Positions 1,258 through 20,071 of a stretch of DNA of 21,143 bases are shown here, piece after piece. Position numbers and translations under genes: made by a program. The stretch covers positions 1 to 21,143 of IMG/VR virus record IMGVR_UViG_3300032895_000395. One strand, written 5' to 3'. Under the pieces are notes generated by a model. That model did no database searches and had not been told where the DNA came from. It saw only the letters and a list, made by a program, of their open reading frames with translations. Each line of letters opens with the position of its first letter. The stretch's first letter is position 1. The DNA comes from a virus.

Positions 1258-1278
1258 AACGCGGTTGTGCCAGAGAAA

Positions 1279-1306
1279 CGAAAAACCCGGCAAACTTCGC
1301 CGGGTT
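1279..1306 (-). terminator. Rho-independent terminator between portal and protease-capsid genes
   Basis: Read on the minus strand, AACCCGGC (1306-1299) pairs perfectly with GCCGGGTT (1291-1284) around a 7-base loop, and the stem runs into a string of five T (1285-1281). It lies 25 bases after the portal stop codon and about 20 bases before the capsid start. It should reduce capsid transcription from upstream unless an antiterminator acts or RNA is processed here. I see no convincing promoter between it and the capsid start. Confidence 0.8.
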
Positions 1307-1331
1307 AGTCGTCTTATCTTGGAGCGCAGGC

Positions 1332-3564: not shown

Positions 3565-3600
3565 AGTTCACGCTTACCCTTCCGCGGACGATTGCCGCAA

Positions 3601-5583
3601 CTATCCGCGCCAACCGCCCATCCATCCGCCGCCGCGGCGACGGTTCAGGCTGCGCTCTTGGAGACGCAGATTGCGGCGCTGTTCAGCCTCTACCCTTTCG
3701 CGCTCCTGCTCTTGCTGCTCCTCATACGCGACAAGCTTGCCCTTCGGCTCCTCCGGCGGCAGCTCCGGCCGCGGCGTCCTCGCGACGGTCCGCTTCTGCA
3801 GGCTGCGCTTCAACGCCGGGAAGTCCGCTCGAATACGCTCAAGTGCCGCCATCGCATAGACGCGAGTGTCCAGAGCTTCATTCCGTTCGCGGCGCTTCTG
3901 CCAGACCTTCACCCTCTGACCGCCCCGCTGCACGGTAATGAGTTGCTCTGCGGCAATCTGCGCAAAAAACTCTTTGTCGAACATCGTCGGATTATCGGGA
4001 AAGTGACAGTAGCCCGGACCTTCCTCCTCAATCTTCAGCCGCGCATAGAACGATTCCTTCGCGGCATCGACGCCAACCATGTACAACACCGTCTTCGATT
4101 CGTCGACCCGCCGCGGCCGCGCGAGGATCGGATGCGCCCCAGAACGCCCCTTGCAGGCGTATATCTTCCGCCCGCGTCGCGTACGAGTGAAGGCGTACAC
4201 GGCCTTCGTCTGGTCACCGGAGTCCACCATCGCGCACCGAATTCGCAGGTGAATTCCGCTCTCGTGCACATAGGTTCGATTCAGCCATTTGTCAACGTCG
4301 CCCCACACCTTCGGCCGGGATGGATCGCCCTCGAAGATCCGATGCTCCAACGCCCACGACTCCTCGCCGGCGCCCCAGCCGATAGCCGTCGCTTCTATAC
4401 GATCCTTCTGTACGTCGAGACCGGCGGTAATTACGAGGACACCGGCCGGAGCTTCGGCCTCGTATGCGTGTACGCGGCTCGCAAAGACGTCCTGCTCGAT
4501 CCGGTCGCCCTTGAGTTCCCATGTCTCCGCCAACACTGAATTGACGAAGGTCTGTAGAAGAAACGGGTCGTTGCCAGCGTTGATGAACTTGCGGATGATC
4601 TCGGGCCATGTGACCCACGGCGAATAGAGCTGGTTGAGATGAAAGCCAGCCGTCTTCCCATCGACGCTCTTCGCCTGGGCAATCCACTTGCCGTGCCGAA
4701 CCATGTCTGGCTTATCGCTCTCAAGTATCTCGCAGCCATTCACACAGACGTAATAGCAGGAGTCCGGATCGTGCTCAACCGTTCCGTCTTGCGCCCTCCG
4801 CTTCGACCATTTCAGATTCGCCCACTTGAACGTCTGGGGCTCTCCACAGTGTGGACACGGAACGAAGTACTGACGCTTATCGCTCTTCTCGTACTCGGAA
4901 TCGATGCGCGAGGCACCTTTCACGGATGGTGTGGAGGTGTAGACGATCAGCCTGTTCCAGAACGTCGAGGTGCGTTCCTCCATCAGCTTGCCAGGATCGC
5001 CTTCGGCACCGGCCGAGGCCTCCCACTTGTCGACCTCATCACCCTGCACGACGCGCCGCGATCGAGATGCTAGTCCCGCCGGAGAGTTTGCACCGGCGAG
5101 CGCCAGGCCGCCGCCCGGAAATTCCTTATTGAGCAAGGTGTTTCCAGAATGGCGAGAGCGCGGGTCGCCGAAGAGCGGACGCAGCACCGGCGTGTCGCGG
5201 ATAGCTGGCGCCAGCCGCTCCTTCGAGAAATTCTCGGCCGCCTCGAGCGTCGGCTGCACCATCAGAATCGGCGACGGGTCATGGTGGACGTAGTACCAAA
5301 GCATGTTCAGCAGCCCGGCAGTCTTGCCGAGCTGCGCGCCCCACATGGCCACGATGCGCTCGATGGTCGGGTCCGACCCGGCATCCATGAAGCCGCGTTG
5401 ATACTCCGCCGTCGCCGTGTCCCACTTGCCCGCCTGCGCGGACGACTCCCGCGGCAGATATGCATAGCGGTCGGCCCACTCAGACACGGTGAGCTGCGGC
5501 GGAGGCTCTAGTAAGGCGAGGCCTGTTCCGAGAGCCTCATCCAGCGCCTCTAGACTCTCGGCGGTCGAGGCGTAATCAATCAT
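3601..5583 (-). CDS. terL: Terminase large subunit, lambda GpA family
   Basis: This 660-residue protein is the ATPase-nuclease motor that cuts concatemeric phage DNA and pumps it into the prohead. The ATPase domain has a Walker A-like WGAQLGKT (residues 81-88) and Walker B VVQGDEVD around residue 182. A zinc-binding insert follows (CPHC near 243-246 and further cysteines near 276-284), as is usual for the GpA family. The nuclease domain begins near residue 383 with VLVITAGLDVQKDRIEA; its Asp390 is a likely metal ligand, and CAMVDSGDQTKAV follows. Length is typical for the family. I prefer the ATG at 5583 over the GTG at 5589; both overlap the end of the small subunit gene. It is followed by the gpW-like and portal genes. 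Confidence 0.96.
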   Translation of the reverse strand: MIDYASTAESLEALDEALGTGLALLEPPPQLTVSEWADRYAYLPRESSAQAGKWDTATAEYQRGFMDAGSDPTIERIVAMWGAQLGKTAGLLNMLWYYVHHDPSPILMVQPTLEAAENFSKERLAPAIRDTPVLRPLFGDPRSRHSGNTLLNKEFPGGGLALAGANSPAGLASRSRRVVQGDEVDKWEASAGAEGDPGKLMEERTSTFWNRLIVYTSTPSVKGASRIDSEYEKSDKRQYFVPCPHCGEPQTFKWANLKWSKRRAQDGTVEHDPDSCYYVCVNGCEILESDKPDMVRHGKWIAQAKSVDGKTAGFHLNQLYSPWVTWPEIIRKFINAGNDPFLLQTFVNSVLAETWELKGDRIEQDVFASRVHAYEAEAPAGVLVITAGLDVQKDRIEATAIGWGAGEESWALEHRIFEGDPSRPKVWGDVDKWLNRTYVHESGIHLRIRCAMVDSGDQTKAVYAFTRTRRGRKIYACKGRSGAHPILARPRRVDESKTVLYMVGVDAAKESFYARLKIEEEGPGYCHFPDNPTMFDKEFFAQIAAEQLITVQRGGQRVKVWQKRRERNEALDTRVYAMAALERIRADFPALKRSLQKRTVARTPRPELPPEEPKGKLVAYEEQQEQERERVEAEQRRNLRLQERSLNRRRGGGWMGGWRG

Positions 5584-6124
5584 CCTCACCGCCGGCGTCT
5601 GCAGACGCGTTCGGGCGCAGGGCCATCAGGCGGCGACAAAGCGCGTCCGCTTCCCGCTGGAGGATCTCTTGAATGCGCTTCCGATCCTTGACGCCATAGA
5701 GGTGCCCGGTCAGCTTCGCAGGCATCGACAGGATTGAAGTGCGCAGAGCGCTGGATACCCGAGCCATTGCCGCCTTCGCGTCGGCGATCGCTACAACCTG
5801 GCCCCGCTCGCGCGCCAGCTTTATCTCCAGCAAGTCGGCTTCTTTCTTTACCTTGCGGAGAACGGCTTCGTCGTATGTCTCCTCGTCGCGCGAGGGCACC
5901 GAGACGCCCATACTTCCACGACTTCCAGCAAGCTCAATGCGATATTGGACATACCACTCTCGCACCGCTGGCCACGAGAAGCGGCGCCCGCGTCCGTCTC
6001 CGGAACATGGCAAGTCATTGTCTTTTATATAGTTGCGAACCATCCGGGCCGAGACACCCAGGAGCTCCGCTACATCCTCTAACTCGAGAGCCGAGTAGGT
6101 GGATGGAGTTTCAACAGAAGGCAT
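5576..6124 (-). CDS. terS: Terminase small subunit, Nu1-like
   Basis: This 182-residue protein has an N-terminal winged-helix/HTH (residues about 12-38, VAELLGVSARMVRNYIKDND), a linker, a long helical stretch rich in charged residues (EAVLRKVKKEADLLEIKLAR) and a C-terminal segment with LRTSILSMPAKLTGHLYG, a pattern shared with lambda Nu1-type proteins. It would recognise the packaging site and hand the DNA to the large subunit. The gene overlaps the large subunit gene by a few bases. The stretch of about 105 bases between this gene and the upstream HNH gene holds no supported gene; a weak promoter-like TTGGCG / GATAGA pair at 17-base spacing is present there but is not convincing. Confidence 0.88.
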   Translation of the reverse strand: MPSVETPSTYSALELEDVAELLGVSARMVRNYIKDNDLPCSGDGRGRRFSWPAVREWYVQYRIELAGSRGSMGVSVPSRDEETYDEAVLRKVKKEADLLEIKLARERGQVVAIADAKAAMARVSSALRTSILSMPAKLTGHLYGVKDRKRIQEILQREADALCRRLMALRPNASADAGGEDD

Positions 6125-6230
6125 ATCCGGTCTCTATCGCGGAAGTGGAAATGACCGCCAAAAAATCTGGCGCTAGAACGAACGCGCAGTGGCGCGTCAC
6201 CCGCGGATTGCGAAAGCTGGCGGAGTACCT

Positions 6231-6986
6231 TTAGACTTTAGCGCCCTTAGCGAGATTGTCAGCCGCCCACATCGGTTGAAGATTTGGAAGAGCCCAAGCG
6301 CGTAGAAGCTGGGCCTTGTCGAACAGATCGAACGCGGCGAGGGGCACAACGTGGTCGATATGTATCCGCCCAGCCAAAAACTCCTGCCAATTCATTCCTT
6401 CGGTAAACCGCTGCTCCAGATGCTCCCTGAGATCGCTGATGGAATATCCGAGTAGGTTCTCGACTGCCTTGGATTGCCCACCCCTCCTGATTGCATCGCG
6501 CATTAGATCGCACAGCTTGGCGCCGGGCTTTTTCCGTTTATGTTGGCGACGCATGCGCTCGCGGAGGTTGAATTCCGGATCAATTCGATAGCGGATGCGA
6601 TACCTCTCTCCCACGGATAGCCCTTGCGCTAGCCATGGCTTTGCGCGTACCAAATCGTCTTTAGCCGCAACGCGTGCAGCTTCTTGTGCTTCTTTTTGTG
6701 CGCACCGTTGATGTCTCCGCTCAGCGCGAATGCCATACTTGCTGCCGCGCTTCTGTGCCTCTTTGATTCGACTATTGCGCCGCTCCTGTAGCCGCTGCTC
6801 CGGAGTTTGACGTGCGCGCCTTCTCCGCATTCGCTCTCCGGCTAGACTGCGAAAATAATCAGAGTTTCTTGCTTGGCGCTCTCGCCACTTGACGACGCAG
6901 CACGCCTTGCACGTCAGTCCCTTACTCGGAAACGCATCTCTTGGTAGAGCGAGTCCACACCCCTTGCAGCCTTTTTCCCGGGTCAC
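6231..6986 (-). CDS. HNH endonuclease with N-terminal zinc finger
   Basis: The 251-residue protein starts with a Cys4 motif (Cys7, Cys10, Cys26, Cys29) followed by a very basic helical region of about 120 residues. The C-terminus carries an HNH nuclease core: IHIDHVVPLAAFD (Asp211, His212), LPNLQPMWAADNLAKG with Asn235 and Asn244. An HNH gene beside the terminase genes is common in phages that cut DNA at cohesive ends, where it helps the terminase cleave; it could also be a free-standing homing endonuclease. The start is a GTG at 6986, the only start codon in the frame after an in-frame stop; it has no well-spaced ribosome binding site. Just upstream lies a palindromic, operator-like sequence. 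Confidence 0.9.
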   Translation of the reverse strand: MTREKGCKGCGLALPRDAFPSKGLTCKACCVVKWRERQARNSDYFRSLAGERMRRRRARQTPEQRLQERRNSRIKEAQKRGSKYGIRAERRHQRCAQKEAQEAARVAAKDDLVRAKPWLAQGLSVGERYRIRYRIDPEFNLRERMRRQHKRKKPGAKLCDLMRDAIRRGGQSKAVENLLGYSISDLREHLEQRFTEGMNWQEFLAGRIHIDHVVPLAAFDLFDKAQLLRAWALPNLQPMWAADNLAKGAKV

Positions 6987-8146: not shown

Positions 8147-8260
8147 CTATTCGTTCAGTGAATAGCGATATGTAGGTGGCAGGCCAGCGCAGGCGCCGCA
8201 AAGCAGGAGAAAACCTGCCAGCCATAACGCCCACTCAGGAATATCGAGACCCGGATACAT
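8147..8260 (-). CDS. Membrane microprotein (37 residues)
   Basis: A short frame from the ATG at 8260 encodes 37 residues with one hydrophobic segment (WALWLAGFLLLCGACAGL, residues 10-27) and a short polar tail ending YRYSLNE. GAGG stands five bases upstream of the ATG at good spacing. It starts six bases after the stop of the zinc-ribbon microprotein gene and ends 19 bases before the next start, so it fills the only space between two real genes. Function unknown. Confidence 0.6.
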   Translation of the reverse strand: MYPGLDIPEWALWLAGFLLLCGACAGLPPTYRYSLNE

Positions 8261-8266
8261 CGCACC

Positions 8267-8401
8267 TCACTCACTGTCAGCTTCGCGCTCCGCGTGATAC
8301 AGCGGCGGCGCATCGCTGGGATTGATGAATGGCGGCCAGATACACGGCACACCAGCACACACACCACACTTCCGACACTTGACGCTCAGCGGATCGCGCA
8401 C
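8267..8401 (-). CDS. Zinc-ribbon microprotein (44 residues)
   Basis: The frame begins with a GTG at 8401 directly after the TGA of the HNH gene and encodes 44 residues: RDPLSVKCRKCGVCAGVPC gives four cysteines (positions 9, 12, 15, 20), followed by a Pro-rich segment and an acidic end. The CxxC-G-x-PC pattern is typical of tiny zinc-binding proteins common in phage genomes; their function is mostly unknown. It likely relies on translational coupling with the HNH gene. Confidence 0.6.
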   Translation of the reverse strand: MRDPLSVKCRKCGVCAGVPCIWPPFINPSDAPPLYHAEREADSE

Positions 8402-8782
8402 TCAGCCGACTACCTTTCTCGGTACAACCTTCTTTGGCTTGTGCGTTTCGTCGTGACACTCGTGGCAAAGCCACTTCAGATTCGCCAGCCGATCATCCCT
8501 ATGCGCTCCACCCATCCCTCTGAGCCGCCTATGATGTGCATGCCCGGCTTTCGTCAGAACCGGCAAATACACTCCGTCCGCAGCGCCGTGAACGTCATGT
8601 AGCGGCGCAAAATCGCCGCAGTCCTCGCACATGCCGCGCTCACGCTCAAAGCACTCCTGGCGACGCCGTTCCCACGCTTCGCCAGTCAGCACTTCGCGGC
8701 CGTCATCACGCCGGACCGTCTTCGTCTCAACCGGCTTCCGCTTGAACCCCGTTCGCCGCAATGGCGTATAGCTGCGCAGCAT
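8402..8782 (-). CDS. Small HNH endonuclease
   Basis: The 126-residue protein begins MLRSYTPLRRTGFKRK, a basic N-terminus common in small phage HNH proteins. It has CEDC (Cys52, Cys55), HAHHRRLRGMGG (His81-His84), Asn101 in RLANLKWLCHECHDETH, and Cys106/Cys109, so the zinc-stabilised beta-beta-alpha-metal core is complete: residues for metal binding and catalysis are all present. It would nick or cut DNA. The start is the ATG at 8782, forming a TGATG overlap with the upstream gene; a TTG at 8803 is less likely. This is the second HNH gene of the window and is not related in sequence to the longer one near the terminase. Confidence 0.9.
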   Translation of the reverse strand: MLRSYTPLRRTGFKRKPVETKTVRRDDGREVLTGEAWERRRQECFERERGMCEDCGDFAPLHDVHGAADGVYLPVLTKAGHAHHRRLRGMGGAHRDDRLANLKWLCHECHDETHKPKKVVPRKVVG

Positions 8783-9018
8783 CAGTCGTTCGCGCCAGGG
8801 CAACGCTGCACGTACTTGCGCGCCGCGTTCTCATCCCACGCCGGAAAATGCTGCGCGCCGGCGCACCACACCACAAACTGATCCTGCTTCGTGAACTGCG
8901 TATACTCGCCCACCACAACGTCATGCCGGTTGCGATAGATCTCGTGCACCCGAAACCCTCCGCCGCCAACCTGGAAGTATCCGGTGCCGAGCGCCAGCGT
9001 AAGCAAAAACGCTTTCAT
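8782..9018 (-). CDS. Hypothetical protein with hydrophobic N-terminus
   Basis: The 78-residue protein starts MKAFLLTLALGTGYFQV, which may be a short signal peptide or membrane anchor, followed by a soluble part (EIYRNRHDVVVGEYTQF, VVWCAGAQHFPAW) with two cysteines that could form a disulfide. The ATG at 9018 has GAGG eight bases upstream. The stop overlaps the start of the small HNH gene. No family is recognised. Confidence 0.65.
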   Translation of the reverse strand: MKAFLLTLALGTGYFQVGGGGFRVHEIYRNRHDVVVGEYTQFTKQDQFVVWCAGAQHFPAWDENAARKYVQRCPGAND

Positions 9019-9405: not shown

Positions 9406-9605
9406 GATCGATGATTTATCGTCTTCTCCGGCCAAGTGTACGGATCAGCATAGTCTTCATCCGCAATTTCGACCACAGGAACGCCGTTATACGTTGCGAC
9501 GAACACGCTCGGATGCGGAATCATTACGTGGGTCTCGTAGCGAAGGTAGACTTCAAGCTGTGACTGCATCCCCTGCAGCTTTTCTATAAGCTCGGCGACG
9601 GTCAT
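9402..9605 (-). CDS. Hypothetical phage protein (67 residues)
   Basis: The 67-residue protein starts MTVAELIEKLQGMQSQLEVYLR, a pattern seen in many small phage proteins with an N-terminal helix followed by a beta sheet, and then PVVEIADEDYADPYTW. No function is known to me for this group. The ATG at 9605 follows GGAG at close spacing and overlaps the end of the upstream zinc-ribbon gene by four bases (ATGA). Confidence 0.75.
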   Translation of the reverse strand: MTVAELIEKLQGMQSQLEVYLRYETHVMIPHPSVFVATYNGVPVVEIADEDYADPYTWPEKTINHRS

Positions 9606-9769
9606 TTCTCCACCTCGAGACTCTCCGGTTTACTATGGCCAGGTTCGCACTTGTCCGTTGAATGCATCCACACCCCACAACTCTTGCAATCTGGTTGCCG
9701 TTCTGACTTCACAACAGACCCGCAAAACCAGCAGTGCCATTCCCTCACCGTCTCAGGCTGCTTCTCCAT
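9602..9769 (-). CDS. Zinc-ribbon microprotein (55 residues)
   Basis: The ATG at 9769, with GAGG seven bases upstream, opens a 55-residue frame: residues 13-31 hold two CxxC pairs (WHCWFCGS; DCKSCGVWMH), then a further Cys41 and His45. This is a compact zinc-ribbon likely to bind nucleic acid or protein. It overlaps the end of the helicase-methyltransferase gene by 17 bases and the next gene by four, so it is embedded in the same transcript. Confidence 0.72.
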   Translation of the reverse strand: MEKQPETVREWHCWFCGSVVKSERQPDCKSCGVWMHSTDKCEPGHSKPESLEVEK

Positions 9770-12269
9770 CTCTCACCTCATCACTCATCAGACTAAACAA
9801 ACTCGGCATCTCTTTCTCCTGCTCTGCCGCCTTCAGGTACGCGCAGCCGTCCAGGAAGTACGCCGGATTCAACTCCACGCCCATCCCGCGCCGATTCTTC
9901 AGCAACGCGCGATACGGAACCGTCATCAACCCACCGAACGGGTCGAACACCAGCTCACCCTCCATCGAGAACTGCTCAATCACCCGGTCCACGATATCGA
10001 ACTGCAGCGGACACAGGTGCATTTCCTTGCCCTTGGCGTGCTGCGCTCCGTTCAGCGTGCGCATCCGCGTCACATCGCTCCAAACCTCGTCATTGTGGCT
10101 CTGCGGCTGCAACAGCATGAACGTGACCGGCAGAATCCCCTTTGCCTCCAGCGCCTCGCCCAGCTTCACATGCTGCTCAAAGCTGTACACCTCGTTCAAG
10201 CTGTAGTCGCGGAACATCTTGAAGATCTGCGCGTGGTCCAAACCCTCCAGCTCCGCCGGCGTCAGCAGCCGCTCACCGCTGCTTCGCGTAAAGCCATGCG
10301 CGTCAATCTGCCAGCGCGAGCGCGAGTACTTCGACTTCTGCTTCACCACCGGATTGTCGGCGTAGCTATTGCTCGTGTCCGAAGGTGGTTTGCGGAACAG
10401 CAGCAGGTATTCTGGCATGCCGCAACCCATCTTCGTGCCATCCTTGCACTGCTCCGTCCATCCCAGCCGATAGGTCTGGTTGTTCTCCCGAACGACGTCT
10501 GTCACGATCGTCTTCATGCCCATGTACGCGAAGCCGTGCTTCGTATAGTGCTCGATGCAGCGCGCGTGGAACGGATAGACCGTCTGGAAGCCCAGCCCCG
10601 TCATCCCGCCCGGCACAATCCGGTCCTTCACGTGAATCGCCGCAATGCGACCGGGCTTCATCACCTTCAGCAGATTCGGCGTCAGAAAGTCCATCTGCTC
10701 AAAGAAATGCTCGTTCGAGTCGGTATGGCCGAAGTCGTTATAGCTCGGCGTGTACTCATACTGCGTGCTGAACGGAATCGACGTGACCAGCAGGTCCACG
10801 CTGTTCTCTTCCATCCGCGCCGTCTCTTCCACGCAATCGTTATTCACAGCCGTCCAGCCGCGGCCGCTCACCTCCACGCGCTCCACGCCCAGGCTGCGCT
10901 CCAGTGCGCTCGCCATCGCTTCCTTCGCCAGTCCGTACTCCCGAATGATCTCGCTCATCTTCCTGCTCGTCTCCTCGTGTTTGGCCCACTTGGCCTGCAG
11001 CAACTCCAGCACCTTGCGCTCGCTCTCGGCGTGGATGATGTGAATCTCCACCTCCTCGGTCTGCAGAAAGCGGTAGATGCGGTGAATCGCCTGGATAAAG
11101 TCGTTGAATTTGAAGCCAATGCCGACAAAGATCGCTTTGTGGCAATGGCGCTGGAAGTTGCACCCGCTGCCCGCGATGACCGGCTTCGCCGCAAGGTATT
11201 GAATCTTGCCATCGCTGAAGTCGAGAATCGCCTGCTCGCGCTCGTCAAGGTCTTGGCTGCCGTACACACTGACAGACGCCGGGATCGCTTGCTCAATCGC
11301 CGCGCGTTCTGCCTCGAGGTCGTGCCACAGCAGAAAGCTGTCCGCCGGCGACGCCGCCAGAATCTCCTGCATCTTCGCCACGCGCGCTGCCAGCGTATCG
11401 CGCTTCTCCCGCGCCGCGTCCACCACGCCCAGCGACGCTGAGCGCATCAGAGCCACCTGCCCGCTCGTCTCAATCTGCGCCTGCGAGTGGTCGACTGCGA
11501 CCTCGTGATAGATCACCTTCATCGGCGGCAGCGCATAGCCCTCGTCGGAGTAGCCAAGATCGCTCGGCTGTTGCAGGAACAGCGCCCAGCTCGCCACCCA
11601 CAGCCAGAACTCGCGCTCTTTATGCGGATGGATGGTCAGTTCGTCGGCTTTCTCGCTGTTGCGCTTGAAGAAGCGCGTCTTCGCCTCGCCCACATCCATA
11701 ATGCCGAGAAACGCCGAGTACGCGAGGATCTCGATGTAGTCGTTCGGGCTCGGCGTCGCCGTGGCCACGAAGCGGTACGGAACCGGCTCAAACAGCCGCA
11801 TGAACTCGCGGAACGTCTTCGTCCCACCGAATCCGCGCAGCACGCTCGCCTCGTCGAGACTGGCAACCGTGAACTGCGCGGGGTCCAGCTTCCCATCGCG
11901 GACCGTCTCGTAGTTCGTCAGATAGATGCCCGTCTCGCCACACTCCGCAATCGATCGCACGAACGTCACCGGCACGCCAAGCTTCTCCGCGTCGCGGCGG
12001 AATTCCTGGCGCACACCGAGCGGCAGCACGATCAATCCGCGGCCGCCAACCTTTTCGAGCGTCAGCCGCACCGCCTCAATCTGCATGAACGTTTTGCCCA
12101 GCCCGAACTTCGCGAAGATCGCCCGCCGTCCGCCGCGCACCGCCCACAACACCGTGTCGCGCTGGTGCGGTTTCAGCAGTGGATGCACGGCCGAGGCCTC
12201 GATGCCCACCCCGAGGTCCGCTGCCACACACTTCTTCGCCGCCAGAAACTCTCTGTACATCTGAATCAT
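9753..12269 (-). CDS. SF2 helicase-DNA methyltransferase fusion protein
   Basis: The 838-residue protein joins two enzymes. Residues about 30-430 form an SF2 helicase/translocase: Walker A KFGLGKT (54-60), DEAS at 139-142, a TATP motif at 170-173, and QAIHRIYR (393-400) as motif VI. Residues about 465-815 form an amino-methyltransferase of the beta order: motif IV as TSIPFS (496-501) first, then the segment HLCPLQFDIVDRVI, then SAM-binding motif I DPFGG (776-780). This class makes N6-methyladenine or N4-methylcytosine. The usual catalytic motif is (D/N/S)PP(Y/F/W); here the second position is Ile. There is no visible nuclease domain. The ATG at 12269 has GGAGG in front at good spacing and overlaps the cytosine methyltransferase stop (ATGA). 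Likely role: modifying phage DNA against host restriction. Confidence 0.9.
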   Translation of the reverse strand: MIQMYREFLAAKKCVAADLGVGIEASAVHPLLKPHQRDTVLWAVRGGRRAIFAKFGLGKTFMQIEAVRLTLEKVGGRGLIVLPLGVRQEFRRDAEKLGVPVTFVRSIAECGETGIYLTNYETVRDGKLDPAQFTVASLDEASVLRGFGGTKTFREFMRLFEPVPYRFVATATPSPNDYIEILAYSAFLGIMDVGEAKTRFFKRNSEKADELTIHPHKEREFWLWVASWALFLQQPSDLGYSDEGYALPPMKVIYHEVAVDHSQAQIETSGQVALMRSASLGVVDAAREKRDTLAARVAKMQEILAASPADSFLLWHDLEAERAAIEQAIPASVSVYGSQDLDEREQAILDFSDGKIQYLAAKPVIAGSGCNFQRHCHKAIFVGIGFKFNDFIQAIHRIYRFLQTEEVEIHIIHAESERKVLELLQAKWAKHEETSRKMSEIIREYGLAKEAMASALERSLGVERVEVSGRGWTAVNNDCVEETARMEENSVDLLVTSIPFSTQYEYTPSYNDFGHTDSNEHFFEQMDFLTPNLLKVMKPGRIAAIHVKDRIVPGGMTGLGFQTVYPFHARCIEHYTKHGFAYMGMKTIVTDVVRENNQTYRLGWTEQCKDGTKMGCGMPEYLLLFRKPPSDTSNSYADNPVVKQKSKYSRSRWQIDAHGFTRSSGERLLTPAELEGLDHAQIFKMFRDYSLNEVYSFEQHVKLGEALEAKGILPVTFMLLQPQSHNDEVWSDVTRMRTLNGAQHAKGKEMHLCPLQFDIVDRVIEQFSMEGELVFDPFGGLMTVPYRALLKNRRGMGVELNPAYFLDGCAYLKAAEQEKEMPSLFSLMSDEVRDGEAA

Positions 12270-13364
12270 CCCAACTCCTCCACCGTCCGAATGCGCTGCC
12301 CGATCCATCGCACGACGGGCACAGCCTTTGAATTGCCGAGCGCCTTGTATCGAGGCCCGTCCGCCGCTGGCTTCTTTCGGAACGGCACGAGCGTGTAGTC
12401 GTCGGGGAAGCCCTGCAGCCGCTCACACTCGCGCGGCGTGAGACGGCGCACAGCCATGGAGTGCGCCACCATTCCAGGCACTCCTCCACCACTCCGCGAC
12501 GCCGAGAATGCAATCGGCACGAGCGGCGTACCGCGCCCTGTCCCATCCTCGCTCGCATCGAATCCGTCGGCGCGTAAGGCGTGAGCCACGTCAGGGAAAC
12601 CCCCAACGGGCACGAATAGGGGATGCCCCCCGTTGATGTGCTGATCCTCAAGGCCCATCTTGTCGCCGAAGTGAGCGTTGAGTGTGGAAGCGACGTCTGC
12701 TGGCCACTTCTCGGCGATCAGGCCGCCGTCACAGTCGAAGTCTGTTCCGAGCCCACCGCCTGCAGAGCTGCGCGAAGGGATGCTGGGAGCGACTTGCCGC
12801 GCTTCTCGGCGCGGCGGAGGATTCCCCGACAGGCTGTGGCGCTCAAAAAGTACCGCTGCGGCACATCGCCAGTCTCCAAGATGTCCGACAAGGAAGACGC
12901 GACGGCGGCGCTGGGGTACTCCAAAGTGCTGAGCGTCAAGGATTCTCCAGGCGCACTGATACCCGAATTGGCCCAGCAGCCCGAGGAAGATTCCAAACGC
13001 CCGTCCTCCGTCAGCCGACAGGACGCCGGGCACGTTCTCCCAAACCACCCAACGGGGCCGAAGCCGGCCAGCCAGTCGAGCAAACTCGACCGTGAGCGCA
13101 CCACGCTCTCCATTGATTCCGGCTCGCAGTCCGGCGACGCTGAAGTCCTGGCAGGGAGTTCCGCCGACGAGAAGATCGATAGCTGCATAATCACCCGGTT
13201 GAATCGTGGTGAAGTCACCGTGGTTCGGGACTTCGGGGTAGTGGTGCTTCAGCACCGCCGATGGGAACGGCGCAATCTCGGCAAGGAATTCTGGTGTCCA
13301 ACCCCAGCGGATGCCATGCGACCGTGGCGCTCTCGATTCCGCTGCAAACACTGCCGTACCTCAC
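12266..13364 (-). CDS. DNA (cytosine-5) methyltransferase, N-terminus frameshifted
   Basis: The main frame shows C5-methyltransferase motifs: motif IV GGTPCQDFSVAG with catalytic Cys, motif VI ENVPG, motif VIII QRRRRVF, motif IX RECERLQGFPDDYT and motif X GNSKAVPVV. Motif I is missing from that frame. It is present in the next frame: from GTG 13364 the codons read RYGSVCSGIESATVAWHPLG, the usual motif I block, up to 13302. The main frame takes over at Trp (13300), so removing one T at 13300-13301 restores a 365-residue protein. GTG 13364 has GGAGG four bases upstream and overlaps the previous stop (GTGA). As written the gene is disrupted, unless ribosomes slip or the base is a sequencing error. 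The target-recognition region lies between motifs VIII and IX; its sequence target cannot be read. Confidence 0.9.
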
Positions 13365-13882
13365 GCCGCCTCCATCTGTGCAAACAAGCATCCCTGATCC
13401 AGCTCTGGCACTACGCGCGGAGCATCGAACAGCGGCTCCTCGCTCTCATCCGGAGGATTCTGCGTCAGATACTCAATTCGTGCCCAAACCTCGTCGGTGT
13501 CGAAGTCCGCCATCGAATCAATCCAGCTCAGCAACCCCGTCCGCTCGGCATCCGCGTTCAGGCCGAGCACGTCGCAGCAGTTGTCGAAGCTCAGCAGGTA
13601 GCCTTCTCGGTCCAGCCTCGCGTCCGGCGCGCCGCGGCGAATCCAGTCCCGCGCCATCACCGCCCGGTCCCACGGCTCGCCGAACAGCCGCAGCATCCAG
13701 TCGCCTGCCGTCTGCGGAATCCGCGTCTCCCACTCGGCGTCGACGTAGGGACAAGGCACGTTCTCAACCTGCCCAACCTCGATGATCGCCGTCCGGATCA
13801 GCCGCATCGCCAGTTGCATGACGGGCGTGTAATTCCACTCCCGCCGCGCCGGTTGCCACTTCGATACGTTCAGTCCCGCCAT
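13361..13882 (-). CDS. Hypothetical phage protein (173 residues)
   Basis: The protein is acidic in its C-terminal half (DSMADFDTDEVWARIEYL; PPDESEEPLFD) and has a central part rich in Trp, Asp and Arg (DWMLRLFGEPWDRAVMARDW). The only cysteines are near VPCPY, DNCCDV and GCLF. I do not recognise a family. The ATG at 13882 follows a GGGGTGGG sequence. It lies just upstream of the cytosine methyltransferase and provides its ribosome binding site, so the two are coupled. Confidence 0.75.
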   Translation of the reverse strand: MAGLNVSKWQPARREWNYTPVMQLAMRLIRTAIIEVGQVENVPCPYVDAEWETRIPQTAGDWMLRLFGEPWDRAVMARDWIRRGAPDARLDREGYLLSFDNCCDVLGLNADAERTGLLSWIDSMADFDTDEVWARIEYLTQNPPDESEEPLFDAPRVVPELDQGCLFAQMEAA

Positions 13883-14040
13883 AATCCCACCCCGTCAGCT
13901 AGCTCCGTCAGTTCGCGACAGATGACATACTCACAGTCGTCTTCGGGTCCGTTATGACTGCAGTGGATGATTCGCCTCGCCCACAAGAGCACGTGCACGA
14001 TCCGCATGCGGTCGACCTTCTTATCTCGAACTTCCGCCAT
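13870..14040 (-). CDS. Small hypothetical protein (56 residues)
   Basis: The ATG at 14040 forms a TGATG overlap with the stop of the initiator-like gene, and the frame ends 13 bases inside the next gene. The 56 residues are helical and charged (MAEVRDKKVDRMRIVHVLLW), with Cys27, Cys36 and Cys41 that might bind metal. It fills the space between two secure genes and has matching codon usage. Function unknown. Confidence 0.65.
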   Translation of the reverse strand: MAEVRDKKVDRMRIVHVLLWARRIIHCSHNGPEDDCEYVICRELTELADGVGLWRD

Positions 14041-15128
14041 CACGCCACCGCCGCTTCTGCCGGCTCATTCGCCAACCGCTGCCGCACCCAGTTCGGAGCC
14101 TCCGCCTCGTACCGCGGAGAGCCGCGCGATCGCACCACGCGCCAGTACGCCAGAACATCCTCGTCCTGCTTCGCCAGCAGCTTCTTCGTCTGCTCCGCGC
14201 TCGGCGCCGCCGCGGTCCGCATGCCCACCTGCGCTTCCGCCCGCTTCAGCGCCTTCGGCTTCCCAAACGCATCCAGCGGGCCGAGCTCGTACCCCGGCAG
14301 ACTCGCAATCCACTTGCGCGGCCGCTCCGCCAGGTTCACATCGCTCGCGCCGCGGTTACGCAGCATGGCCTCGAATCGCTCGATCGTGATGCCGGGCAGC
14401 GATCGCAACAGGTCCGCGAGGTGGGCATTGTCGCCGCCGTTCCACGCCGGATCGTTGCCCGTCCAGGCGCGAAAGGCTGCGAAGAGAGCGTCTTTGCAGG
14501 TGCCGTGCAGCGGATGTGCTTCGCTCTTCGCCTTGGCCGGTTTTGGTGCGGGCGCGGCGTCAGCCGTGCCAGTCTTTTCATCAACACCTACACCAACGCC
14601 TACACCAACACCAACACCAACATGGTCAGAAACTTTTTCAACGTCTCCAGAACTTTCTAAAACTTTTTGAAAAGTTCTAGAACTCTTCGGAATGTTCTGG
14701 AATCCATGTGCGAGGTCGTCAGAGTTGCGGCGCTGCTCATTCTCCAGCCGGATCTTCTCGACATAGGCCGCGCGGTACGCCTCATGCTCCCGCTCTGGCG
14801 GTGCTGGCGTCTGTCGGTCAGCAACGGAGCGGTACTGCCCCAGCATCTTCGCCGGTATCTCCCACTGGGCCCAGGTTGAGCCGTCTGGCGCACGGTAGAC
14901 GAACAGCAGGAAGTTATCGTGGAACTCCCGCATCCACTTGGTGAGCTGCTCGCGTGTCGGCTTCGTGCGAAACGAGCCATAGACCTCGCTCAGCAGCCAT
15001 TCCATGCTCATCTTGAATCGCCCGAAGCTGTTCGAGGCTGCCAGCAGGCGTGGAAAGTGGAGCTGCGCTTCATCGCTGCACGCGCGAAGCCGGTCTCCGT
15101 GAAGTAGCCCTTGAGGATCAATCAACAT
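14040..15128 (-). CDS. Replication-initiator-like protein
   Basis: This 362-residue protein has an N-terminal region (about 1-110) like those of phage replisome organisers: LIDPQGLLHGDRLRACSDEA, a helical block ending in WLLSEVYGSF, and a wing-like YRAPDGSTWAQWEIP. A flexible middle (about 147-200) includes seven Val-Gly pairs encoded by a tandem DNA repeat. The C-terminal domain (about 205-362) is helical with RFEAMLRNRGASDVNL and ends with a charged helix. Its position beside the sliding clamp gene, and the origin-like sequence inside it, support a role like lambda O, but no helicase loader is seen in the window. The ATG at 15128 follows the upstream stop directly. Assignment is by position and weak likeness. 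Confidence 0.6.
   Translation of the reverse strand: MLIDPQGLLHGDRLRACSDEAQLHFPRLLAASNSFGRFKMSMEWLLSEVYGSFRTKPTREQLTKWMREFHDNFLLFVYRAPDGSTWAQWEIPAKMLGQYRSVADRQTPAPPEREHEAYRAAYVEKIRLENEQRRNSDDLAHGFQNIPKSSRTFQKVLESSGDVEKVSDHVGVGVGVGVGVGVDEKTGTADAAPAPKPAKAKSEAHPLHGTCKDALFAAFRAWTGNDPAWNGGDNAHLADLLRSLPGITIERFEAMLRNRGASDVNLAERPRKWIASLPGYELGPLDAFGKPKALKRAEAQVGMRTAAAPSAEQTKKLLAKQDEDVLAYWRVVRSRGSPRYEAEAPNWVRQRLANEPAEAAVA
14582..14621. repeat. 12-bp tandem repeat (3.3 copies)
   Basis: The units CAACACCTACAC, CAACGCCTACAC, CAACACCAACAC and a partial CAAC lie head to tail, with one or two differences between copies. On the coding strand they give a run of Val-Gly pairs. They lie beside an AT-rich palindromic tract and may be iterons. 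Confidence 0.85.
14582..14690. other. Candidate phage replication origin inside the initiator-like gene
   Basis: The 12-bp tandem repeat (14582-14621) is followed at once by about 60 bases that are strongly AT-rich in an otherwise GC-rich window. That tract holds three related blocks AAACTTTTTC, GAACTTTCTA and AAACTTTTTG, an inverted pair around 14661-14676, and a perfect 12-base palindrome AGTTCTAGAACT (14673-14684). Iterons plus an AT-rich unwinding tract inside the initiator gene is the layout of the lambda origin in gene O. Origin function is inference. Confidence 0.45.
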
Positions 15129-15812
15129 TTAGGCCGCCCACTCTCTGTCTTGTTCGTACTCAATGCGGGAGCCGCGCATCATCTCCGTCAGCTCGCCCTT
15201 TAGCCACTCCTGATCGCAGCGCGCCAGATTCAAATCCTGCAGGTGCTCGCGCAGGAATCTCCGCACTGTGGCTGTCGAATAGATGCCGCCGTAAGGCTTC
15301 ATTCGACCGCGCATCGTCCATCGGTTCACGGTCGCCGCGTGCACACCGAGAGCCACCGCCAGCTCACTCACCGTGAATCCGTCATGGCTGACGCGGCAGG
15401 AGTGCCCGAGCTTGCACAACTTCAACTTCACCGCGTTATGCGTGCGACCCAGGCGCTGCGCGATCGCGGAGACGGGATGCTCGCCGGCCATATCGAGCAG
15501 CAGAGTGAGCTCCGCACTCGACCACGGCTTACGCTCCGCCTCAAAGCGCAGGCCGAGAATCCGGCAGCGCCACTTCACCGACTCCGTAGGGATGTTTGTC
15601 AGCTTCCGGAACGCTGCCAGCTTCTCACTGAGCGCCTGGCGTGTTTTCTGCGCATACGCTTCGCGCAGCAACGCGTCGCGCTCCGGCGTAAAGCTGTATT
15701 TCTGCCGCGTTGGATGGTTGCGGCATATCGGACAAAGACGGTCCTTCGGCGACGCGATCCGCTTTCCGCAGCCGTCGCACTCCACGGCATTCTTTGGGAT
15801 ACCTTTCGGCAC
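15129..15812 (-). CDS. Zinc-finger protein with Myb-like and HTH domains
   Basis: The 227-residue protein has a Cys4 zinc finger (Cys12, 15, 27, 30), a helical region YSFTPERDALLREAYA, a second Myb/SANT-like block (PWSSAELTLLLDMAGEHPVS, near 97-136, including AIAQRLGRTHNAVK) and a MerR/HTH_17-type domain near residues 146-190 (FTVSELAVALGVHAATVNRW then GGIYSTATVRRFL). It is very likely a DNA-binding regulator. The GTG at 15812, with GGAG seven bases upstream, is preferred; a longer frame would overlap the sliding clamp gene. Its stop is directly followed by the start of the initiator-like gene (TAAATG), so the two are probably made together. Confidence 0.8.
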   Translation of the reverse strand: MPKGIPKNAVECDGCGKRIASPKDRLCPICRNHPTRQKYSFTPERDALLREAYAQKTRQALSEKLAAFRKLTNIPTESVKWRCRILGLRFEAERKPWSSAELTLLLDMAGEHPVSAIAQRLGRTHNAVKLKLCKLGHSCRVSHDGFTVSELAVALGVHAATVNRWTMRGRMKPYGGIYSTATVRRFLREHLQDLNLARCDQEWLKGELTEMMRGSRIEYEQDREWAA

Positions 15813-15844
15813 TGCTCTTCTCCATCTGCGTTGAGTAAAGGTCT

Positions 15845-15871
15845 GCGACGGGCTCCCACTCCGCCCGTCGC
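15845..15871 (-). other. Perfect 9-bp hairpin after dnaN
   Basis: On the minus strand GCGACGGGC (15871-15863) pairs perfectly with GCCCGTCGC (15853-15845) around a 9-base loop. It lies in the 71-base gap after the dnaN stop, one of the few gaps in this packed region. There is no U-run after it, so it is not a standard intrinsic terminator; it could protect or punctuate the mRNA. Confidence 0.6.
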
Positions 15872-15883
15872 AATTCGGGTGAA

Positions 15884-17005
15884 TCAAATTTTCATCGGCA
15901 TGACAACGTACTCGAAGCTCTCGCCTTCGACCGGAGAGCACGAGATCCATAGCGGCTGCCGGCTGGAAGTGTCGGCAAAGCGAAGCGCCACGTCGCCATC
16001 GAGCCGCGTCAGAACGTCCAGCAGATAGTTCGCGTTGAACCGCGCCTTGAACGGCTCAAAGCTATCCGCAGACGCCGCCGAAACATCGTCATCGATCTCG
16101 CCAGCCTGCTCCGAGGCCGACTGAAAGTGAATCGACTCCGGATGGATGGTGAGTGTGACCGCGAAACTCCGCTGCTCCGCGAAGCTGACGCAGCGCCGCA
16201 GTGATCCGACCATCTCCGCTGCATTCACCCGCACAATCACCGCCGACTGCGACGGCATGACGCCGCGGTAGTTCGGAAACCGCTTCACCAGCTTGCGTCC
16301 GCCGATCTCGATCGATCCGGTCGAGTCGCCAAACGAGGCGTAGACGTTCTCTCCGCCATCGCGCAGCTCAATCTTCGCGGCGCCGTCGCCGACGAGCTTG
16401 CGCAAGGCATTCACCATCGGGAGCGAGAGAAGTACGTCGTCCAGCTTCCCGTCCGTGTGAACCGAGTAGCGCGTGAGACGGTGGCCATCGACCGAAACCA
16501 TGCTCAGCTTGCCGTCGCGGACCTCGAGTAGCGCACCGGGAACGCCGCCGTTCTTCGTGTCGTCCTCCGGGACCGCGAAGGTGAAGTCAAGCATCCGCGC
16601 GAATTGCTCCGGCTTGAGAGCAAGCGCAGCCTCTCCAGCCAAAGCACCGACGCTCGGAAACGACTTCGGGTCGAGAATCGGAAGCCTGGTGCGCGCCTTG
16701 CCGCAGGTCAGCGAGGCGCGGCGATCGTCAACAGCCGAGAGCTTCACGCTGTCGCCGGCCAGCAGCTTGGAGAACTTCTCGAGCGTGAGCGCAGGCAGAA
16801 GCAATGGCTCTCCTGGCTGACCGGCCGCCGCGAGGCGGACCCGGATGTAAAGCGTCAAGTCGGTGGCCGTGAACTCCAGAAACTCCGCGTCTTTCTGCTG
16901 CACACGGATGGTTCCGAGCACTGGAATGGTCGTCTTGCGCTCCACGGCGGGCGAGACGGTGGCGACGGCTTTCTGTAACGAACGAAGAGGAACCGCGATA
17001 GTCAT
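15884..17005 (-). CDS. dnaN: DNA polymerase III beta subunit (sliding clamp)
   Basis: The 373-residue protein has the three-domain layout and length of bacterial beta clamps: an N-terminal MTIAVPLRSLQKAVATVSPA, IPVLGTIRV, FTATDLTLYI, a middle with LSMVSVDGHRLTRYS, then GRKLVKRFPNYRGVMP, and the typical ending YVVMPMKI. The last residues form part of the pocket that binds polymerase and other partners in bacterial clamps. A phage clamp would tether the host or phage polymerase to phage DNA. No polymerase gene is in the window. The ATG at 17005 directly follows the stop of the zinc-finger gene, with AAGGAG a little far upstream. Downstream lies a strong hairpin. Divergence from a host copy cannot be judged here. 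Confidence 0.95.
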   Translation of the reverse strand: MTIAVPLRSLQKAVATVSPAVERKTTIPVLGTIRVQQKDAEFLEFTATDLTLYIRVRLAAAGQPGEPLLLPALTLEKFSKLLAGDSVKLSAVDDRRASLTCGKARTRLPILDPKSFPSVGALAGEAALALKPEQFARMLDFTFAVPEDDTKNGGVPGALLEVRDGKLSMVSVDGHRLTRYSVHTDGKLDDVLLSLPMVNALRKLVGDGAAKIELRDGGENVYASFGDSTGSIEIGGRKLVKRFPNYRGVMPSQSAVIVRVNAAEMVGSLRRCVSFAEQRSFAVTLTIHPESIHFQSASEQAGEIDDDVSAASADSFEPFKARFNANYLLDVLTRLDGDVALRFADTSSRQPLWISCSPVEGESFEYVVMPMKI

Positions 17006-17197
17006 CTAAGCTGCTTTCTCCTTTGTCGCCTTCAGGCACAGCGCGCAGTCGGATGCGTTGTGGTCCGGCGGGTTGAATAACGCCAATTCATATGCGTGAA
17101 GGCAGGTTGGGCAGAGCTCGCCGCCTCGCTTCTCACACAACTCGCTGCGCCGATACGATTTGCGGCACGTTCGGCATTCCTCTCTTGGTTCAGTCAT
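17006..17197 (-). CDS. Small zinc-finger protein (63 residues)
   Basis: The 63-residue protein carries CRTC near the start, a lone Cys, CPTC in the middle and CALC near the end (seven cysteines in all), so it may bind two zinc ions. The ATG at 17197 overlaps the end of the DUF1064 gene by eight bases. No precise family is recognised; small treble-clef proteins of this sort are common in phage replication clusters. Confidence 0.7.
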   Translation of the reverse strand: MTEPREECRTCRKSYRRSELCEKRGGELCPTCLHAYELALFNPPDHNASDCALCLKATKEKAA

Positions 17198-17507
17198 CGA
17201 TCGCCTCATTGAAGTGCTCGTACTTCCATCCATCTCTTCGGTTGCACGTCACCGCGACAAACCGATATTCCGGATACATCTCCGCCGCGACTTTCACCTT
17301 CACGCGCGCGTCGTCCTCCCAGAAACCCTTCACCTCGTGGAACTCGATGAAGCCTTCCGGCGTGACCACGCAGAAGTCCGGCTCGTAAAACGTCCTGTCC
17401 GCCAGGCGCAGCTTCAGCGGCTCAAATCGCCACCGCGCAACCTCTTGCGGCTTCGTGCGCGTGCCGATCTCCAGCAGTTCGGCGTAGCGCGTCTCCAGTT
17501 GATTCAT
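17190..17507 (-). CDS. DUF1064 phage protein, likely PD-(D/E)XK nuclease fold
   Basis: The 105-residue protein matches the DUF1064 pattern: MNQLETRYAELLEIG, then RWRFEPLKLRLADRTFYEPDF, FIEFHEVKGFWEDDARVKVK, and a last strand YRFVAVTC. The YEPDF Asp and the EVK Glu and Lys have the arrangement of a PD-(D/E)XK nuclease site, with Glu6 as a possible further ligand. The family is common in phage replication modules and may resolve branched DNA, but its activity is not established for this protein. The ATG at 17507 is chosen because the conserved part begins here; its ribosome binding site is weak. Confidence 0.85.
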   Translation of the reverse strand: MNQLETRYAELLEIGTRTKPQEVARWRFEPLKLRLADRTFYEPDFCVVTPEGFIEFHEVKGFWEDDARVKVKVAAEMYPEYRFVAVTCNRRDGWKYEHFNEAIDD

Positions 17508-17545
17508 GCGGCCCGGCTGATGCTGTACGCGACGGGCGCGGCCCC

Positions 17546-17737
17546 TTACTCGCAAGCACCCTCCTCGTCGTCAACGTGCGGACGCCCGCACACCGCGTCC
17601 CACGGCATCGCCGTAACAGCCATGCAGATGCACAGATAGGGAAAGTTGACGTGCCGCTCACGCGTCGCGAGCACCAGCCCTGCGACGGCCAACACAACCG
17701 CCAGCCACACCCGAACCGCTAAAACGACTCCCCGCAC
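17546..17737 (-). CDS. Small membrane protein with cysteine-rich tail
   Basis: A GTG at 17737 with GGAGG six bases upstream starts a 63-residue protein. One hydrophobic segment (VVLAVRVWLAVVLAVAGLVL, residues 4-23) is followed by a tail with five cysteines. It begins inside the end of the upstream gene (19-base overlap). No family is recognised; membrane insertion is likely. Confidence 0.65.
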   Translation of the reverse strand: MRGVVLAVRVWLAVVLAVAGLVLATRERHVNFPYLCICMAVTAMPWDAVCGRPHVDDEEGACE

Positions 17738-18039
17738 TGCGCACCTCCATGTTTTGCAGCCAGATCTGCTGTCCTCGCGGCCGTCGCGCTCCGCGCCTTT
17801 GCCGCTGCCATCTGCTCAGACTTCTGCTTCATCCACGACACCTCGCGCGTGCGCTTCTCGACCATGTGATCGAGCGCCAGAGTGTCGCATTGCGCCTGCA
17901 GCTTCTTCACGCAAACTGCGACATCCTCGTGTTCGAGGACTTCCGCCGTAAGCGAGAGAAAGACGCCATCGCTCGCGTAATCGATATGCTGCGACGGCCG
18001 CTTGAACTGCGAACTGACTGTGATCGTCGTCACGCGCAT
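17719..18039 (-). CDS. Hypothetical protein (106 residues)
   Basis: The N-terminal half reads as a beta-containing domain (MRVTTITVSSQFKRPSQHID, then GVFLSLTAEVLEHEDVAVCV) and the C-terminal half is a charged, alanine-rich helix. The N-terminal pattern is seen in phage proteins of unknown function. The ATG at 18039 has GGAGG eight bases upstream, and the gene overlaps both neighbours. I give no function. Confidence 0.72.
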   Translation of the reverse strand: MRVTTITVSSQFKRPSQHIDYASDGVFLSLTAEVLEHEDVAVCVKKLQAQCDTLALDHMVEKRTREVSWMKQKSEQMAAAKARSATAARTADLAAKHGGAQCGESF

Positions 18040-18194
18040 ACGTCATCCCTCCGCCGGCGCGTGTGCCGCACCGTCGCCGTGCACCGGCCCATCATCCGCA
18101 GCCGGTAGCACTGCATCTGCGCCTCAAAGTCGGAGCCGAGGTACTTCCATTCCTTCTTTGCCGCGGACCACGCGTAATAACTGCAAACCGGCAT
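18030..18194 (-). CDS. Small basic hypothetical protein (54 residues)
   Basis: The ATG at 18194 forms an ATGA overlap with the stop of the sigma-like gene, and the frame ends ten bases inside the next gene. The product MPVCSYYAWSAAKKEWKYLG continues with a helical part and an arginine-rich end with TVRHTRRRRDD. Four cysteines are spread along it. No family is recognised. Its exact fit between two secure genes is the main support. Confidence 0.6.
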   Translation of the reverse strand: MPVCSYYAWSAAKKEWKYLGSDFEAQMQCYRLRMMGRCTATVRHTRRRRDDVCA

Positions 18195-18400
18195 CACTCG
18201 TACCTCCCTGCGCGGCTCGTCCCTTTCGGGATGGCGTAGCGTCGTCTGCTGTGAAACACCGCATACATGTCGAGTGCGGCTCCGTGGTTGCGGGTGCGCA
18301 GCTTCTGCATTCCAGACTCGAAGAGCTGCCGCGCCCGCTCGCGCGTCACGCCAAGCTCCCGCCCAATCTGCTCAAAGGTCATGGCTGGCTTCGACACCAT
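18194..18400 (-). CDS. Stand-alone sigma-70 region 4-like HTH protein
   Basis: The 68-residue protein contains TFEQIGRELGVTRERARQLF followed by ESGMQKLRTR (residues 8-37), which closely resembles region 4.2 of sigma-70 factors, the part that reads the -35 element. Regions 1-3 are absent, so it cannot be a full sigma factor. The C-terminal 30 residues are basic. The ATG at 18400 has AGGAGGT six bases upstream and forms a TGATG overlap with the nuclease gene. It may steer host RNA polymerase or simply bind DNA as an HTH regulator. Confidence 0.75.
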   Translation of the reverse strand: MVSKPAMTFEQIGRELGVTRERARQLFESGMQKLRTRNHGAALDMYAVFHSRRRYAIPKGTSRAGRYE

Positions 18401-19434
18401 CACGCCACCTCCTGCATCGCTTCGCGCTTGCCTTCCACCTCGGCGGCGTCATACACGCGCAGCACCTCAATCGGCTCGCCACAGCGCTTGTACTTCGCCG
18501 CGAGCTCCGGATGCTCGGCGTCGAGAGCACGGCTATCCCACGTCAACCGGCCGCTCTGAATGCTCTTGTTGAGCTTCACGCCCTGCGATGGGACGGCGAC
18601 GTGGGTGCGATCGCCCAGCAGCGCCTTGATGCCGGTGCGCAGTGTGCTGCGAGTCGCCTCCAGCTCCTCGATCAACGCATCCGTCTCTTTGAGTCCGCCC
18701 ACGAGGCGAACCAGGTCTGGATGATCGTCGGGGATATAGTTCGGCTTCGTCTTCGGCTTCGCCGGCAGCGCCTCGGCATTGCGGCAACCGCGCCGGTAAA
18801 CGCACTTCTCGCAGCGCTGATCGTTGAAGTCCGCGAGCTTGGCCGGAATCTGCCCCGCCTGCACCTGCTTCCAGAACCGCTCCTCGGCGGAGTTCAGCAC
18901 GGCAATCAACTTTTCGTCGCGCTCGTACCGGAAGCTGAGAAAGCGAAAGGTGTACGGCTCGAGGACCGCGAAATAACCCCACTTCCATCCCGTCACCGCC
19001 AGGCCGTGCTGCACCTGCAGGACGTAGTGCGGCGGCATCCCCTCTTCGAGCATGTTCTGAAACACATGCTCGTTCGCCGTCTTGCACTCGAGGTATCCCG
19101 GGCCCTCCGCCTCGTCCACCGTCTCGATGCAGCGGTCGACGTTGACGCGCATCCACGGACGGTCCTTTGAGACCCGCGTTGGCATCTTGCGGACCTTCAG
19201 CCCGGTCCGCTCGACGAACATCTGCGCAATGATGGGCTCCAGCTTGTGGCCACGCTCGAACAGGCCGAGCTCGCGCTCGGTGTGCTGATAGTCGGGTGCC
19301 ACGCCAGACTTATCGAGGAACAGAGCGCGCGGGCAGCCGTAGCCTTCCTGCAACACGCCAGCCGCATCCGATCCGCCGATACCAAGACGCCGCTCCTCGA
19401 GCCACGCCTGCGTTCCAGAGAGAGCAGAGTTCAT
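18400..19434 (-). CDS. YqaJ/lambda-exonuclease-like nuclease with iron-sulfur-type cysteines
   Basis: The 344-residue protein is a PD-(D/E)XK nuclease of the YqaJ viral recombinase type: GIGGSDAAG (18-26), a helix with ERGHKLEP (Glu60, Glu66), Asp100 in RVNVDRCIE, and GYLECKT with Glu116 and Lys118. It would chew double-stranded DNA ends for recombination and replication. Cys34 in YGCPRALFL and Cys208, Cys211 and Cys217 (spacing C-x2-C-x5-C) match the four-cysteine pattern that holds a 4Fe-4S cluster in Cas4 and AddB nucleases. The C-terminal part adds a helical domain. No single-strand annealing protein is found nearby. The ATG at 19434 overlaps the upstream stop (ATGA); the frame is open further upstream but those residues look like noise. 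Confidence 0.9.
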   Translation of the reverse strand: MNSALSGTQAWLEERRLGIGGSDAAGVLQEGYGCPRALFLDKSGVAPDYQHTERELGLFERGHKLEPIIAQMFVERTGLKVRKMPTRVSKDRPWMRVNVDRCIETVDEAEGPGYLECKTANEHVFQNMLEEGMPPHYVLQVQHGLAVTGWKWGYFAVLEPYTFRFLSFRYERDEKLIAVLNSAEERFWKQVQAGQIPAKLADFNDQRCEKCVYRRGCRNAEALPAKPKTKPNYIPDDHPDLVRLVGGLKETDALIEELEATRSTLRTGIKALLGDRTHVAVPSQGVKLNKSIQSGRLTWDSRALDAEHPELAAKYKRCGEPIEVLRVYDAAEVEGKREAMQEVA

Positions 19435-19658
19435 GCCGCCCCGCTCTCTGGCGCGGCCACAACCTCGCCCTGCGGCTTGCATGCCTCGCATACAAAACGC
19501 CGGCTGCTGGCGTCCATCACGGCCTGACCGGCGACAACACGGCCTTTGTGGAGAACGATGGTTGCCGGCTTGAGGCACGCGCAGCACTTCCGCGGCGTCT
19601 CGTTCCCGCTGAGTGGACGGCTGAAGAGAAGAATGGAGCGAGGATTTAAACGCTTCAC
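19431..19658 (-). CDS. Small CxxC protein (75 residues)
   Basis: The 75-residue protein carries CCAC (residues 25-28) and CEAC near residues 57-60, a likely zinc ribbon, with a short basic N-terminus. The GTG at 19658 has GAGG seven bases upstream and overlaps the previous stop (GTGA). It ends in an ATGA overlap with the nuclease gene. No family is recognised. Confidence 0.7.
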   Translation of the reverse strand: MKRLNPRSILLFSRPLSGNETPRKCCACLKPATIVLHKGRVVAGQAVMDASSRRFVCEACKPQGEVVAAPESGAA

Positions 19659-20071
19659 GCTGCCACCTCGTTCTGCATCGCCATCGCGACACCGGGATTC
19701 ACCGGCTCCAGCAGCCGGTACTCAAACAACCCTTTCGCCACATGCCGCCGCTCCACGCGGTAGCCAAGCTTGCGCAGGTTGCGGAGTTGCGCCTGGACGC
19801 TGTTTTCCGGGAAGCCGACGCGCGGATGAGCCTTACGCAACTCCGCCGTCAGCTTTTGAATCGTGCGCCACTTCCCGTCCAACGCGTGCTCGCGGATGCA
19901 ATCGATCTGCGTCGCCAGCCGCGTGCGATCGCGAGGCTCGACGTATTCCGGCCCATCAAACGGAGCAGGCTGGGGCGCGGGCGATGGGGGCGCCTCGATC
20001 CTGCGCCGCGTCGGAAGCGAGGCGAACGGACCGTCCAGTTCGCCTTCGGGCACAAAGTCGAAGAGGTTCAT
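19655..20071 (-). CDS. Winged-helix DNA-binding-like protein
   Basis: The 138-residue protein has a proline-rich N-terminal part with little structure and a C-terminal domain (about 58-120) that reads as a winged helix: CIREHALDGKWRTIQKLTAE, then ENSVQAQLRNLRKLGYRVER and a wing AKGLFEYRLL. This suggests DNA binding, perhaps regulation of the early genes. The ATG at 20071 forms an ATGA overlap with the stop of the DUF7666-type gene. Its exact role is unknown. Confidence 0.75.
   Translation of the reverse strand: MNLFDFVPEGELDGPFASLPTRRRIEAPPSPAPQPAPFDGPEYVEPRDRTRLATQIDCIREHALDGKWRTIQKLTAELRKAHPRVGFPENSVQAQLRNLRKLGYRVERRHVAKGLFEYRLLEPVNPGVAMAMQNEVAA

What the first reader, a model, noticed from the sequence alone, without database searches (positions are those of the whole stretch)
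13290..13364. Cytosine methyltransferase motif I lies in a different frame: one extra base splits the gene
The methyltransferase frame lacks the SAM-binding motif I. The neighbouring frame, from GTG 13364 with a good ribosome binding site, encodes RYGSVCSGIESATVAWHPLG, the expected motif I block, and ends exactly where the main frame begins its conserved WTPEFLAEI. Deleting one T at 13300-13301 (in GGGGTTGG) restores a 365-residue enzyme. This may be a real inactivation, a phase-variable or slippage switch, or a sequencing error. Motif reading is direct; the cause is inference.
Basis: partly seen in the sequence, partly recalled or inferred. Interest (0 to 1): 0.62.

Follow-up and report, generated by a model that had tools for sequence, protein, structure and literature searches.

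The report
One-base break in phage cytosine methyltransferase
A phage DNA-methylating enzyme gene has one surplus base that cuts off its cofactor-binding start; none of 157 comparable relatives has a break there, so this is an ordinary sporadic mutation or an assembly error, not a new kind of genetic switch.

Summary
On the minus strand, the frame from GTG 13364 encodes RYGSVCSGIESATVAWHPLG, the usual N-terminus and motif I of a phage C5-cytosine DNA methyltransferase. The rest of the enzyme (WTPEFLAEI... to 12266) lies one base out of register. Every comparable relative reads through this point in one frame: 79 of 79 viral and 78 of 78 bacterial-genome relatives, leaving out three whose contigs start inside the gene. 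The DNA alignment puts one surplus base in the window exactly at the Leu-Gly|Trp codons. This is the only frame break in the window wherever relatives allow a check. Both sides of the break remain well conserved, so it is recent or artificial. There is no long homopolymer, no conserved shift site and no phage tRNA, so nothing supports phase variation or programmed frameshifting. The enzyme as assembled should be inactive. Real mutation and assembly error cannot be separated without reads, since no other viral record found spans the site. Ordinary; low interest.

The parts
13215..13364 (-). N-terminal frame of the C5-cytosine methyltransferase: GTG 13364, first 21 residues in the family's register (motif I block), then 28 out-of-frame residues to the stop
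   Evidence: 19 of 20 residues identical to the family consensus; score 108 against 29 for the next best place in the window
13300..13305 (-). GGGGTT: site of the single surplus base (any of the six)
   Evidence: DNA alignment with ten relatives places a one-base insertion here; none of 157 comparable relatives has a frame change here
12266..13299 (-). Body of the methyltransferase, in frame from Trp 22 to the stop, with PCQ (motif IV), ENV (VI), QRRRR (VIII), RLTPRECERLQGFP (IX) and GNSKAVPV (X)
   Evidence: PF00145 E=1.8e-51; PHROG 116 E=2.3e-84; motifs read directly from the translation
13359..13378 (-). Start region: GGAGG four bases before GTG 13364, GTG overlapping the TGA of the upstream gene
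   Evidence: read from the sequence

Best explanation
This is an ordinary phage-borne C5-cytosine DNA methyltransferase gene (GTG 13364 to the stop at 12266) carrying one sporadic surplus base at 13300-13305. As assembled, translation from the true start leaves frame after 21 residues and ends after 49. A product from the internal GTG 13351 would lack motif I (part of the AdoMet site) and should not methylate DNA (inferred). The break is neither programmed nor a switch: it is either a recent inactivating indel in this virus or a one-base assembly error. The data here do not separate the two, and I hold them about equally likely.
For: All comparable relatives are in one frame across the site: 79 of 79 viral, 78 of 78 genomic. 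It is the only frame break in the relative-covered parts of the window. The alignment shows a one-base insertion in the window only. Motif I block and body are both well conserved, so there is no long decay. Antonov et al. (PMC3711429) class such singletons, validated by BLASTp and Pfam, as sequencing errors or indel mutations.
Against: No reads and no second record across the site, so polymorphism in the population was not tested. A low level of spontaneous +1 shifting at GGGGTT cannot be ruled out.
Confidence: 0.94

Rival explanations
1. Sequencing or assembly error: the surplus base is not in the virus, which makes a normal 365-residue enzyme.
For: Everything else in the gene is intact and conserved; single breaks private to one record are often errors (PMC3711429).
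Against: No other frame break in the relative-covered parts of the window; 4307 bases at one end are identical, without gaps, to another record; the tract is short (G4) while longer runs in genes are in frame.
Confidence: 0.47
2. Real, recent inactivation: the virus carries the extra base and has lost this methyltransferase.
For: The sequence looks clean elsewhere. Broken members occur: 2 of 80 genome relatives carry an internal stop or a frame break elsewhere in the gene (L230, L236). A confirmed bacterial methyltransferase frameshift without methylation is known (Cj0031/Cj0032, PMC3526280).
Against: No further decay; none of 79 viral relatives shows a break.
Confidence: 0.47
3. Phase variation: slippage at GGGGTT switches the enzyme on and off.
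For: The break lies next to a G4 run.
Against: G4 is short and common (12 in the genes examined); no relative is off-frame.
Confidence: 0.02
4. Programmed +1 ribosomal frameshift at CTG GGG TTG.
For: The two frames are in the right order and overlap.
Against: Not conserved: all relatives are in frame; no tRNA gene in the window; no recoding of a phage DNA methyltransferase seen in the titles and abstracts of the literature search.
Confidence: 0.02
5. Two-polypeptide enzyme: the 49-residue and the 361-residue products work together.
For: Both frames have a GTG start with a purine-rich stretch upstream. Two-subunit C5 enzymes exist (M.AquI, from general knowledge).
Against: The cut would fall inside the AdoMet-binding fold right after motif I; both products carry residues foreign to the family; no relative is split here.
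Confidence: 0.01

Closest known systems
Phage-encoded C5-cytosine DNA methyltransferases (PF00145; PHROG 116), e.g. in Caulobacter phage DMCA and Roseobacter phage CRP-821
   Same: Same domain, motif order and N-terminal RYGSVCSGIE-type block; 52-57% identity over nearly the whole body to these two phages
   Different: Here one surplus base separates motif I from the body
Singleton frameshifted genes (sequencing error or indel) as classed by Antonov et al., PMC3711429
   Same: Break in one record only, validated by BLAST with relatives and by Pfam
   Different: Nothing of substance; here in a metagenomic virus rather than a finished bacterial genome
Campylobacter jejuni Cj0031/Cj0032 (PMC3526280)
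   Same: A methyltransferase gene with a frameshift; there confirmed real, with no methylation found
   Different: A bacterial Type IIG enzyme; here a phage C5 enzyme, with the break not confirmed by reads

Membership tests
C5-cytosine DNA methyltransferase (PF00145) | Domain match above the curated cut-off | tested here: met
   175.9 bits for the body alone, 183.7 bits with the read-through N-terminus, cut-off 22
C5-cytosine DNA methyltransferase (PF00145) | Catalytic PCQ, ENV and QRRRR motifs and C-terminal motifs IX-X | tested here: met
   Read in the body translation
C5-cytosine DNA methyltransferase (PF00145) | Motif I in the same polypeptide as the catalytic motifs | tested here: not met
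   Different frames as assembled; same frame in all comparable relatives. So it is filed as a broken copy, not as an active member
C5-cytosine DNA methyltransferase (PF00145) | Methylates DNA | not testable with these tools
   Needs expression or methylation-aware reads
Programmed ribosomal frameshift gene | Frame transition conserved among homologs | tested here: not met
   0 of 157 comparable relatives
Phase-variable methyltransferase | Long homopolymer or tandem repeat at the break | tested here: not met
   Only GGGGTT at the break
Phase-variable methyltransferase | Mixed alleles in the population | not testable with these tools
   No reads; no other viral record with these exact flanks

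The most novel reading that the evidence does not exclude
This phage lineage makes its cytosine methyltransferase only through a leaky +1 shift, or varies the short GGGGTT tract, so that only a fraction of infections or molecules yields active enzyme.
Probability: 0.03. Interest if true: 0.5.

Novelty: already known. Interest (0 to 1): 0.12.

Why it matters
Mainly for annotation: the methyltransferase starts at GTG 13364, and the gene should be flagged as frameshifted rather than read from GTG 13351. If the base is real, this virus has probably lost one of its two predicted DNA methylases, which could bear on its sensitivity to host restriction.

Tried and rejected
Scan of viral contigs for other tract lengths between the exact flanks: none. 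Scan with the upstream gene for syntenic records: none. Near-identity DNA search in named phages: none. Phage tRNA that might read a four-base codon: none in the window. Other frame breaks as a sign of poor sequence: none found. A first motif scan by regular expression found no match in 7 viral loci; tblastn showed 6 to be intact, and the seventh, L017, starts inside the gene. Promoter and terminator scan around the gene: nothing useful.

Full report
What is there. The window is a 21,143-base virus record, with its main genes on the minus strand. The region 12266-13364 (minus) holds a C5-cytosine DNA methyltransferase gene. The body frame matches PF00145 (E=1.8e-51), PHROG 116 and, among solved structures, HhaI methylase. 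Its own upstream end, from GTG 13351, reads VFAAESRAPRSHGIRW and lacks motif I. The neighbouring frame starts at GTG 13364, four bases after a GGAGG, and that GTG overlaps the stop codon of the preceding gene as GTGA. It encodes RYGSVCSGIESATVAWHPLG, 19 of 20 residues identical to the family consensus. No other 20-mer in six frames comes near it (108 against 29; best of 300 shuffles 43).

Relatives. The body was used as query in the viral and bacterial-genome collections, and 80 loci were kept from each. With the read-through protein as tblastn query, 79 of 80 viral and 78 of 80 genome loci show the N-terminal block and the body in one frame. The other three (L017, L181, L198) have matches that begin in the first bases of their contigs or stored stretch. 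A DNA alignment with ten relatives puts a one-base insertion in the window exactly at the Leu-Gly|Trp codons, within GGGGTT 13305-13300. The surplus base cannot be assigned to G or T, because both give the same protein.

Is the window poor in general? All open segments of at least 100 residues from the 246 other loci fetched by then were compared with the window. The only place where a relative's frame runs across two window frames is 13300, with 100 such matches. Relatives cover about 1-6,250, 8,250-9,000, 9,500-15,250 and 15,750-20,750, thinly in parts. Another viral record, L164, is identical to window 1-4307 without mismatch or gap. Longer homopolymers in the genes examined are in frame. 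So, where it can be checked, the assembly looks clean apart from this base.

Cause. A shift programmed in the family is excluded, since no comparable relative changes frame here, and no long repeat supports slipped-strand switching. What remains is a private indel. The lack of further decay says that it is recent or artificial. Antonov et al. (PMC3711429) treat such singletons as sequencing errors or indel mutations. No other viral record was found across the site with either allele, so the two cannot be separated here. If the base is real, the enzyme is expected to be inactive, since motif I forms part of the AdoMet site (established knowledge of C5 methyltransferases; not tested here). A confirmed case of a frameshifted methyltransferase without methylation is Cj0031/Cj0032 (PMC3526280). 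Breaks do occur in this family: L230 has an internal stop and L236 a frame break, both elsewhere in the gene.

Verdict. Observation confirmed, with a small correction about which base is surplus. Interpretation partly supported: the break is in the record, but the switch reading has no support. Ordinary.

Noticed in passing
L164 (IMGVR_UViG_3300032896_000047) against window 1-4307: Another viral record is 100% identical to the window over 4307 bases and runs on for about 1.3 kb beyond window base 1: the same virus, apparently, in another data set.
   Followed up: partly
9753-12308 (minus): An 851-residue protein with a C-terminal N6/N4 methylase domain, 61-72% identical to many viral relatives: a second, apparently intact DNA methylase gene directly downstream of the broken one.
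   Followed up: no
20068-20895 (minus): A protein with many tandem copies of a nine-residue unit like SAATNTGYQ / SAATNTGDR; matches PHROG 4433 and 27197 of unknown function.
   Followed up: no
15884-17005 (minus): A phage-encoded DNA polymerase processivity factor (sliding clamp; PHROG 947).
   Followed up: no
L236 and L230: Two bacterial-genome relatives of the methyltransferase are themselves broken, by a frame change near query residue 216-238 and by one internal stop.
   Followed up: no
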